From Bacteroidales bacterium (GTDB lineage Bacteria; Bacteroidota; Bacteroidia; Bacteroidales; DTU049): a stretch of 37,034 nt of DNA. The number at the start of each line of letters is the position of its first letter. The first letter of the stretch is position 1. The position numbers were made by a program, and so were the translations under genes. The notes beneath the pieces were generated by a model. The model saw only the letters and a list, made by a program, of their open reading frames with translations. It did not search any database and was not told where the DNA came from. The stretch lies in NCBI GenBank assembly GCA_016937255.1, contig JAFGWG010000185.1, positions 1 through 37,034 on the forward strand. Direction: 5' to 3'. This document shows positions 22,865 through 24,939 of this stretch, piece after piece.

Positions 22865-23530
22865 TTACCACATTATTAACCAATAAACAATCAATAGTTC
22901 TTTCTTGGAAGTGGCAATGCCTCTGGAATAACCATGCTGCCATTCCAAAAGCATAGGTGGGCGAGGATTTTTAATGCTATCGACCCAAAAATTTCCAGGT
23001 TTTGCATCTATTACATAAACTTCTAAATCATCAGGTGCTTTGTCTTTTGTGAAAACAACTTCTTTTCCATCTATTCTTTCTGTATAACTAATCTCTTCAG
23101 TCCCAAATTTTACAGGGTCAAAATCAGGAATTGGTAAGTTTGTTAATTGTTTTGGTGTGTGTTGGTGATGATAATTGGTTGTATCCCAAAGCCAATCAAG
23201 TGTCATTATGAAGTTTGTTGAATCTTGATAAAGAGAGTTCTGCTGAAAAGTAAAGCGGTTTAATATTTCAGAAAAATCATCTTCAGACAGAGATTGCAAT
23301 ATGTAAATATCTGATAATTCTTCTTGTGAAGGCCAAGACATAAACATTTGCTGGATGTCACTCCCGCCTACATCTTCCGGGAAATGCGAACAAAGCCCGG
23401 GGACCGTATAGTATTTCTCAACTTCAGTCTTGTATTTATCTAACATTTGCTTGCGATTATTTGTTTTACAACCACATGAGATCGCAAAAAATAAGATCCA
23501 AATGATGATGATAATTTTATCTCGTACCAT
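22865..23530 (-). CDS. Hypothetical lipoprotein, candidate immunity partner of the RHS cassette
   Basis: Signal/lipobox-like IIIIIWILFFAISCGCK; starts 14 nt inside the end of the RHS ORF. Confidence 0.55.
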   Translation of the reverse strand: MVRDKIIIIIWILFFAISCGCKTNNRKQMLDKYKTEVEKYYTVPGLCSHFPEDVGGSDIQQMFMSWPSQEELSDIYILQSLSEDDFSEILNRFTFQQNSLYQDSTNFIMTLDWLWDTTNYHHQHTPKQLTNLPIPDFDPVKFGTEEISYTERIDGKEVVFTKDKAPDDLEVYVIDAKPGNFWVDSIKNPRPPMLLEWQHGYSRGIATSKKELLIVYWLIMW

Positions 23531-24710
23531 ATCTTTTTACAAATCTATTAATGATTCCAATATTATATGAGTAGTTGCTCCACCCGTTGATAACACGCAG
23601 ACCTATATCATCTGAAAAATCACTTGAGGCAAACTTGTAAAGCCAATGGTCTGATGCTCTGTTTTTCGGTTCCGCATACGTATACCTATATCTTCCAACA
23701 GTTAAGATATTATTCAGCTGTGGCTCACCCATTGTTTGTCCCATCGAATGCGATGTAGGAACTAATCCTCTCTTTACATAGCTATATCTCTCTGCAATAA
23801 TTATATGAGAATTCGTAATATCAGCAGTTCTTGAACCACACCTTGAATGGTCAGTCTCGTTAAAGACTCTTGTGTATTCAACCCCTTGTGTTATTGCTTT
23901 TTCATATCCCATAGCTCCCATAAACTTTTCGGCATTTTCACCACTAAAATGTGCTTCATCAGTTAGGGTTGATCCATTTTCATTATAATAAGTATATGTT
24001 TTCACTTCATCTGCCATTTGACCAATAATTCCATCTTTATCATATGCTGCAGCTCTCATTTCTTCCTCGTTATAACCAAACATATCATTTTTACCAAGCC
24101 ATTTATAGTTTTTACCAACCTGAGCAGCATCGTCTTTTCCTAAGCGGCTGTTATAATGGACATCTCCGGTCTCTTCATCCACGAACCAGTCCATGCCATT
24201 AGGGTCTGTTATCATAACAGGATTCCCTCCTACGTACATGTATGGCGACATGCTCGGATACTTATCCGCCATCGGGTCAACACTCAGCCAAACACTCAGA
24301 TCACTATCCCCGCCTTTGGCGGGGCAGGCGCCATACCGCGCACCGAAGTAAGAATACTGCGTTTCATTATCTTTTTCTCCCGCTGTGGCGGGATTTCCGC
24401 TGCGCTTCAATTTAGCACTAAACTTATAACGAGTATCATACGTGCTATTTTGTTGATTTACAAAGAGTTCCCCGAAGGGTAAGTATTGCACCCCGATAGC
24501 GATCGGGTGTTGTTCGGCGTAACCGATTGCGTTTGTGATAAAACTACTGCTGCCGAGGCCTGTGCTGAGCGGCGTCGAAGCATGGTCGGGGTGGTAGAAG
24601 TGTTGGTTTGGTTCGTATACTTCTCCTTTATTTGCGTGTTTAACATAATATTCTGTTAAACCGTAATGTGAGACGGAATTCGTAAGATAATATGTATGAA
24701 TTTTTACCAT
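23517..24710 (-). CDS. Orphan RHS repeat-associated core plus variable C-terminal domain (N-terminally truncated RHS cassette)
   Basis: RHS core pieces YHPDH...LGSSSFITN...YLPFGELFVNQQ...YKFSAK...YSYFGARY...LSVDPMADKYPSMSPYMYVGGNPVMITDPNG followed by an unrelated ~240-aa tail. Confidence 0.75.
   Translation of the reverse strand: MVKIHTYYLTNSVSHYGLTEYYVKHANKGEVYEPNQHFYHPDHASTPLSTGLGSSSFITNAIGYAEQHPIAIGVQYLPFGELFVNQQNSTYDTRYKFSAKLKRSGNPATAGEKDNETQYSYFGARYGACPAKGGDSDLSVWLSVDPMADKYPSMSPYMYVGGNPVMITDPNGMDWFVDEETGDVHYNSRLGKDDAAQVGKNYKWLGKNDMFGYNEEEMRAAAYDKDGIIGQMADEVKTYTYYNENGSTLTDEAHFSGENAEKFMGAMGYEKAITQGVEYTRVFNETDHSRCGSRTADITNSHIIIAERYSYVKRGLVPTSHSMGQTMGEPQLNNILTVGRYRYTYAEPKNRASDHWLYKFASSDFSDDIGLRVINGWSNYSYNIGIINRFVKRYGTR
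24309..24332. repeat. Palindromic insert A in RHS core (CCCCGCC-TTT-GGCGGGG)
   Basis: Perfect 7-bp arms (24308-24324); encodes extra GACPAKGG in GARY[GACPAKGG]DSDLS. Confidence 0.75.
24378..24410. repeat. Palindromic insert B in RHS core (TCCCGC-TGTG-GCGGGA)
   Basis: 33 nt encoding LKRSGNPATAG between KFSAK and EKDNETQYSYFGARY. Confidence 0.75.
24491..24507. repeat. Palindromic insert C in RHS core (CCCGAT-AGCG-ATCGGG)
   Basis: Encodes PIAIG(V) between EQH and QYLPFGE. Confidence 0.75.
24558..24581. repeat. Insert D in RHS core (GCTTCGACGCCGCTCAGCACAGGC on the coding strand)
   Basis: 24 nt encoding ASTPLSTG between YHPDH and LGSSSFIT. Confidence 0.7.
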
Positions 24711-24939
24711 TTCTTTCGCTAATGAACGAAAAAATTTGTGCAGCCCCCATGTTTTTGTCACAAAATTTGTGCTCGTGCCTCGCGTCAAATTTATGCGCCA
24801 AAAACCGAAAGCCGGTTTGACATTCCATCGTCAACGAAATGGAAAAACCTTCAATGTTTGCGAGGGGGGAAAGACGTGGAACCGTCAGACATGACAAATT
24901 TCAATTCACTATATTTGTAAAAAAATAAATTTTACGAAT

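What the first reader, a model, noticed from the sequence alone, without database searches (positions are those of the whole stretch)
24309..24581. Four independent in-frame palindromic insertions inside one RHS core
Removing four short segments restores an ordinary RHS core: YHPDH[ASTPLSTG]LGSSSFIT, EQH[PIAIG]VQYLPFGE, KFSAK[LKRSGNPATAG]EKDNETQYSYFGARY, GARY[GACPAKGG]DSDLSVWLSVDP. Three of the segments are perfect DNA hairpins (CCCCGCC-TTT-GGCGGGG; TCCCGC-TGTG-GCGGGA; CCCGAT-AGCG-ATCGGG); the fourth is a TTCGACgCCGCTCAGC-type repeat. All are compatible with multiples of 3 nt, so the ORF survived four insertions of different repeat families within ~275 bp. This resembles protein-coding palindromic elements (as in Rickettsia RPEs) but with several families converging on one gene.
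Basis: partly seen in the sequence, partly recalled or inferred. Interest (0 to 1): 0.8.

Follow-up and report, generated by a model that had tools for sequence, protein, structure and literature searches.

The report
In-frame hairpin insertions in an RHS gene
A short RHS toxin-type gene in an uncultured Bacteroidota-like genome carries four small inserted DNA segments (three perfect hairpins and a weaker palindrome) that keep the reading frame; at least one is a widely scattered mobile-looking repeat that also sits in tRNA loops and other genes, so this is a dense example of a known but little-studied kind of 'protein-coding palindrome'.

Summary
Paralogues in the same genome and about 20 RHS loci in related genomes show empty sites at the positions they cover, so the four segments are derived insertions with net lengths +24, +15, +33 and +21 nt. 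Sites 2 and 3 vary independently among paralogues (all four combinations occur); sites 1 and 4 are filled only here. This points to separate events plus recombination between RHS copies. The host gene is a 423-aa RHS core-plus-tail fragment.

The 'mobile palindrome' reading is well supported for site 2: CCCGATnGCnATCGGG has 15 copies here, up to 49 in relatives, none for the reversed control. It is fair for site 1 and for site 3 (a similar element lies in-frame in an RHS gene of another family). It is weak for site 4, whose hairpin is unique in this genome. In-frame palindromes also occur in MetH and probably in T9SS-tail genes.

Best explanation: REP-like hairpin mini-elements, probably moved by Y1 (IS200/RAYT-type) enzymes, tolerated in a recombining RHS core. 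The mobilising enzyme is not shown. Unexpectedly, the site-2 palindrome replaces tRNA D-loops in arrays beside intact tRNA genes in four genomes. New variant of a known kind (REP/RPE).

The parts
23517..24788 (-). RHS core fragment plus variable C-terminal region (423 aa, TTG start as listed; an ATG lies at 24711); only about 140 aa of RHS core
   Evidence: (TIGR03696 29.1 bits, below its 32.5 cut-off)
24558..24581 (-). Site 1 insert, 24 nt GCTTCGACGCCGCTCAGCACAGGC, encodes [ASTPLSTG] with its neighbour; TTCGACnnnGCTCAG family
   Evidence: absent from every other copy that covers the site; related copies elsewhere in this genome
24491..24508 (-). Site 2 element, 18 nt in place of 3 nt (net +15), encodes [PIAIG]; palindrome CCCGATCGCTATCGGG
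   Evidence: filled in window, C20, C159, C236; empty in C147, C212 and relatives
24378..24410 (-). Site 3 insert, 33 nt TTGAAGCGCAGCGGAAATCCCGCCACAGCGGGA, encodes [LKRSGNPATAG]
   Evidence: filled in window, C20, C147, C236; empty in C159, C212 and relatives
24309..24332 (-). Site 4 insert, 24 nt GGCGCCTGCCCCGCCAAAGGCGGG replacing TAT (net +21), encodes [GACPAKGG]
   Evidence: filled in the window only
22865..23530 (-). Downstream overlapping ORF (221 aa), lipoprotein-like N terminus; candidate partner (immunity-type) gene by position only
   Evidence: no convincing Pfam or NCBIfam match

Best explanation
Four small palindromic (REP-like) mini-elements of at least three families inserted one after another into the core of RHS genes of this genome without breaking the frame. 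Sites 2 and 3 were filled first and were spread or separated by recombination between RHS copies; sites 1 and 4 were filled later in, or only remain in, the window copy. Shown: the segments are derived insertions; the copies are polymorphic; one family (TCCCGATnGCnATCGGGA) is dispersed; the frame is kept. Inferred: the elements move as single-stranded hairpins, probably handled by Y1 (HUH) transposases of the IS200/RAYT type; insertions persist because each adds a multiple of three bases with no stop codon in that frame, and because the RHS core here is a short recombining segment under relaxed constraint.
For: Empty sites in paralogues and relatives at protein and DNA level. All four combinations of sites 2 and 3 occur: C212 neither, C159 site 2 only, C147 site 3 only, window/C20/C236 both (C212 and C236 are cut by contig ends). 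Site-2 palindrome: 18 copies with a loose pattern and 15 with the strict one, none for the reversed control, present in 23 of 118 order-level genomes with up to 49 copies. Site-1 family: six further near copies in this genome against 1 in the control. Site-3 element: in-frame in an RHS gene of a genome of another family (L151) and outside long ORFs in G113. Site 4: the exact core CCCGCCAAAGGCGGG recurs in four other genomes. Other in-frame cases in this genome: methionine synthase MetH with a 12-aa gap in solved homologues at that point, and T9SS tail genes. Y1 transposase genes: six matches in this genome, one of them next to two palindromes of the same family as the MetH insert. Literature: TnpA-REP subclass 2.6, mostly Bacteroidetes, is flanked by atypical hairpins with copies elsewhere in the genome (PMC6006769); intragenic REPs are known in many species (PMC3733652).
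Against: No Y1 gene examined is flanked by any of the four RHS families. None of the four shows the GTAG or CGTC foot tag that defines described REPs (sequence inspection). Sites 3 and 4 have no dispersed copies in this genome. The MAG is fragmented, and several RHS copies end at contig ends, so full-length RHS genes could not be examined. Homologous gaps at the T9SS sites are in variable loops and less decisive than the RHS ones.
Confidence: 0.78

Rival explanations
1. The palindromes are not mobile elements: they arose in place by templated mutation (hairpin-driven template switching) or were imported as part of RHS segments from donors, and similarity to repeats elsewhere is secondary.
For: Two of the four hairpins have no other non-RHS copy in this genome. 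Sites 2 and 4 look like replacements (3 nt exchanged for 18 and 24 nt) rather than clean insertions. Flanks of the palindromes are complementary more than expected, which template switching would also give. RHS copies clearly recombine.
Against: The same 18-mer recurs in unrelated contexts in 23 of 118 genomes with zero control hits and in 37 stretches of viral contigs; local mutation would not give the same sequence each time.
Confidence: 0.15
2. The inserted peptides are functional additions to the RHS core, kept by selection (for instance to alter the cage or the cleavage region).
For: All four keep the frame; a similar element lies in-frame in the RHS core of another lineage.
Against: The peptides are simply the translation of DNA repeats in whichever frame they landed (PIAIG or PDSYR for the same palindrome), they lie at four unrelated points, and most RHS copies lack them. 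No test of selection was possible with one copy.
Confidence: 0.05
3. Assembly or binning artefact, or chimeric paralogue collapse in a metagenome-assembled genome.
For: Several RHS contigs end inside the core, typical of repeat-broken assemblies.
Against: The window locus is internal to a 37-kb contig with normal genes on both sides; each insert keeps the frame; two of them are found on three other contigs with different flanks.
Confidence: 0.02

Closest known systems
Rickettsia palindromic elements (RPEs)
   Same: Palindromic repeats inserted in-frame in protein-coding genes, several families in one genome (as summarised in PMC10969869)
   Different: RPEs are reported there as about 150 bp; these inserts are 18-33 nt, include pure perfect palindromes, and lie in a Bacteroidota-like genome; four lie within 273 bp of one gene
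REP sequences with RAYT/TnpA-REP (REPtrons), in particular the atypical Bacteroidetes subclass 2.6 (PMC6006769)
   Same: Small dispersed hairpins; Y1 transposase genes in the genome; one Y1 gene (C161) stands next to two hairpins of a family that also sits in MetH
   Different: No GTAG foot tag seen; no Y1 gene found beside copies of the four RHS families
CGTC-tagged REPs (PMC3733652)
   Same: Known in Bacteroidetes, intragenic copies reported, no dedicated transposase known
   Different: No CGTC tag or CCA tail; the stems differ
RHS core / orphan RHS-tip cassettes
   Same: RHS core motifs, variable C-terminal region, small downstream gene, several recombining paralogues
   Different: Core carries four extra segments; domain score falls just below the NCBIfam cut-off

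Membership tests
RHS core (TIGR03696) | Profile match above the curated cut-off | tested here: not met
   29.1 against 32.5 bits; only residues 137-199 aligned. The copy is 85% identical to paralogue C20 in the alignment and 75-81% to relatives outside the inserts, so it is an RHS core by homology
Rickettsia palindromic element | Palindromic repeat inserted in-frame in coding sequence | tested here: met
Rickettsia palindromic element | Length of about 150 bp and sequence of a described RPE family | tested here: not met
   18-33 nt; sequence comparison with RPE families was not run
GTAG REP / REPtron | Unpaired GTAG tetranucleotide at the hairpin foot | tested here: not met
   flanks of the site-2 family show no constant tag
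GTAG REP / REPtron | Y1 (RAYT) transposase gene flanked by the same repeat | tested here: not met
   hairpins around six Y1 genes are of other families; one such family is in MetH
REP-like dispersed palindrome (general) | Many copies at unrelated sites in a genome | tested here: met
   site-2 family only: 15-18 copies here, 49 in G062; sites 3 and 4 not met in this genome
REP-like dispersed palindrome (general) | Demonstrated mobility between strains | not tested
   no near-identical strain was searched; the paralogue polymorphism is indirect

The most novel reading that the evidence does not exclude
The 18-bp palindrome moves by exchanging a loop for a hairpin: it replaces about three bases (net +15 at RHS site 2 and in four of the six tRNA cases read by eye) at the tips of existing hairpins, such as tRNA D-loops, one T-loop and terminator loops. 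Its in-frame behaviour in proteins would then follow from the mechanism rather than from selection.
Probability: 0.25. Interest if true: 0.75.

Novelty: new variant of a known kind. Interest (0 to 1): 0.5.

Why it matters
Protein-coding palindromes are best known from Rickettsia, and how such tiny hairpins enter genes is unresolved. Here empty and filled alleles of the same gene sit side by side in one genome, so insertion boundaries can be read to the base. The same palindrome in tRNA D-loops and hairpin tips gives a concrete, testable target rule for an element too small to carry any protein.

Tried and rejected
Papers holding the palindrome as text: only primers and similar sequences. No paper in the open library on palindromes in RHS genes or in tRNA D-loops was found by the terms used. 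Rfam: no family on the window; the tRNA arrays match nothing but the intact tRNAs convincingly. A de novo hairpin scan for long GC-rich stems in coding DNA gave five cases in 758 kb, close to the shuffled count for all positions, so only MetH was followed. Flank complementarity was not seen for CCCGCCnnnGGCGGG, so the hairpin-tip rule is claimed only for the CCCGAT family and tentatively for TTCGAC (six distinct flank sets). No structure prediction was run, because it would not bear on the origin of the inserts.

Full report
What is there. The window is contig C69 (37,034 bases) of a 3.85-Mb draft genome in 254 contigs. The gene content of the window (T9SS-type tails, FtsH, fumarase, hydrogenase-like genes) and the T9SS domains in the genome suggest Bacteroidota; the taxonomy was not looked up. 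The ORF at 23517-24788 on the minus strand (423 aa) has about 140 aa of RHS core followed by a variable tail. It overlaps a 221-aa downstream ORF. It is a short RHS fragment, not a full-length RHS gene.

Insertion test. Ten places in the genome match the RHS core at E <= 0.001. Translated and aligned, paralogues on contigs C20, C147, C159, C236 and C212 show where the window copy has extra residues. About twenty RHS loci from related genomes, and two from genome contigs, lack the segments at the sites they cover. The DNA alignment gives the boundaries. Site 1: 24 nt added between the codons of YHPDH and LGSSSF. Site 2: three bases replaced by 18. Site 3: 33 nt added. Site 4: TAT replaced by 24 nt. 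Net lengths are all multiples of three. If lengths were random, four in-frame events would have a chance of 1 in 81; this is my calculation and assumes independence and no bias in length.

History. Site 2 is filled in the window, C20, C159 and C236; site 3 in the window, C20, C147 and C236; C212 has neither; sites 1 and 4 are filled only in the window. All four combinations of sites 2 and 3 exist, which needs recombination between copies or repeated insertion at the same base. Site 2 is identical in position in four copies, so recombination is the simpler reading (inference).

The element families. CCCGATn{2-8}ATCGGG has 18 places in the genome and none for the reversed pattern; the stricter CCCGATnGCnATCGGG has 15 here and occurs in 23 of 118 order-level genomes, with 49 in G062, and the exact 18-mer lies in 37 stretches of viral contigs. 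TTCGACnnnGCTCAGC has one exact RHS copy, one exact copy in a T9SS gene and five with one mismatch. The site-3 sequence occurs in this genome only in RHS copies, but GAGCGAAGCGGAAATCCCG...CGGGA lies in-frame in an RHS gene of G024, and a further copy lies in G113 outside long ORFs. The site-4 hairpin is unique here; CCCGCCAAAGGCGGG recurs in G083, G057, G024 and G082, while the general stem pattern is not strongly enriched over its control (24 against 10 forward matches, counted).

Other genes. In 758 kb of this genome a hairpin of the form CCGGAnTGAAnTCCGG lies in MetH (C167), in the linker between its first two domains, and solved methionine synthases show a 12-residue gap at that point. Two hairpins of that type stand next to a Y1 transposase gene on C161 that scores as IS200/IS605 type. 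T9SS tail genes on C73 and C60 carry TTCGAC elements in-frame; the C73 copy lies between 11-base inverted arms. In G113 the CCCGAT palindrome is read as PDSYR in a T9SS-type tail.

tRNA genes. Upstream of intact tRNA-Cys, tRNA-His and tRNA-Val genes in this genome lie one or two partial tRNA copies in which the D-loop is replaced by TCCCGATnGCnATCGGGA. The same arrangement is seen for tRNA-Pro in G023, for tRNA-Met in G113 (with another hairpin at the anticodon/variable region and, downstream, the palindrome in a T-loop) and for tRNA-Leu in G062 in six tandem units of 89 bp. In two viral contigs a tRNA-Met-like sequence has the palindrome in the D-loop with the rest of the tRNA apparently intact. 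Read by eye, Cys, His, Val and Leu all show a net gain of 15 bases, as RHS site 2 does; Met and Pro show 13 and 14.

Hairpin-tip preference. With the palindrome removed and flanks re-paired at random, real flanks of the CCCGAT family fold better than shuffled pairings: z -3.2 to -4.0, 0-1 of 200 shuffles, 32 distinct flank sets. The exact 18-mer in viral contigs gives z about -2, 5-15 of 300 shuffles, 22 sets. Related sites were thinned but shared ancestry is not fully excluded. An earlier version did not strip the outer T/A pair.

Mechanism. Shown: insertion, polymorphism, dispersal of one family, frame retention, and Y1 genes in the genome. Inferred: movement through single-stranded hairpins by Y1 enzymes. 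Not shown: any enzyme acting on these palindromes. Known work describes TnpA-REP subclass 2.6, mostly in Bacteroidetes, flanked by atypical hairpins with copies elsewhere in the genome (PMC6006769), and REPs inside genes in many species (PMC3733652); RPEs are the best-known in-frame case (PMC10969869). The present case is therefore a new variant of a known kind.

Noticed in passing
L002 1438-1608 (C16), L006 1484-1620 (C118), L014 71-246 (C190); L095, L144 (six units), L075 and L109 in other genomes: Arrays of partial tRNA copies next to an intact tRNA gene, with the D-loop replaced by the palindrome TCCCGATnGCnATCGGGA; six tRNA species in four genomes of different families.
   Followed up: partly
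L223 4837 and L240 3392 (viral contigs): tRNA-Met-like sequence with the 18-bp palindrome in the D-loop and the rest of the tRNA apparently intact.
   Followed up: no
L109 295 (G113:C43): A 3' tRNA-Met fragment downstream of the intact gene has the palindrome in the T-loop and a second hairpin TCCGCCGGCTGGCGGA near the anticodon.
   Followed up: no
L217 1501 / L124 7871-7890 (C167): In-frame hairpin CTCCGGACTGAAGTCCGGAG in the linker of methionine synthase MetH, a 12-aa gap in solved homologues; the same hairpin family stands beside a Y1 transposase on C161.
   Followed up: partly
L195 (C73), L196 (C60): TTCGACAGGGCTCAG elements in-frame in T9SS type B and type A sorting tails; the C73 copy sits between perfect 11-base inverted arms.
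   Followed up: partly
L112 1501, L077 209, L255 1729: The palindrome nested in another copy of itself (L112), and at the tip of 11-12 bp stems (L077, L255).
   Followed up: partly
L007, L008, L009, L013, L016, L005: The palindrome lies inside a longer intergenic repeat of the form GTGTAAATATGTGTTT-palindrome-ACGTGGTTTATAA in six places of this genome.
   Followed up: no
C20, C159, C236, C54, C212 contig ends: Five contigs of the draft break inside RHS cores, so the genome holds more RHS copies than can be read whole.
   Followed up: no
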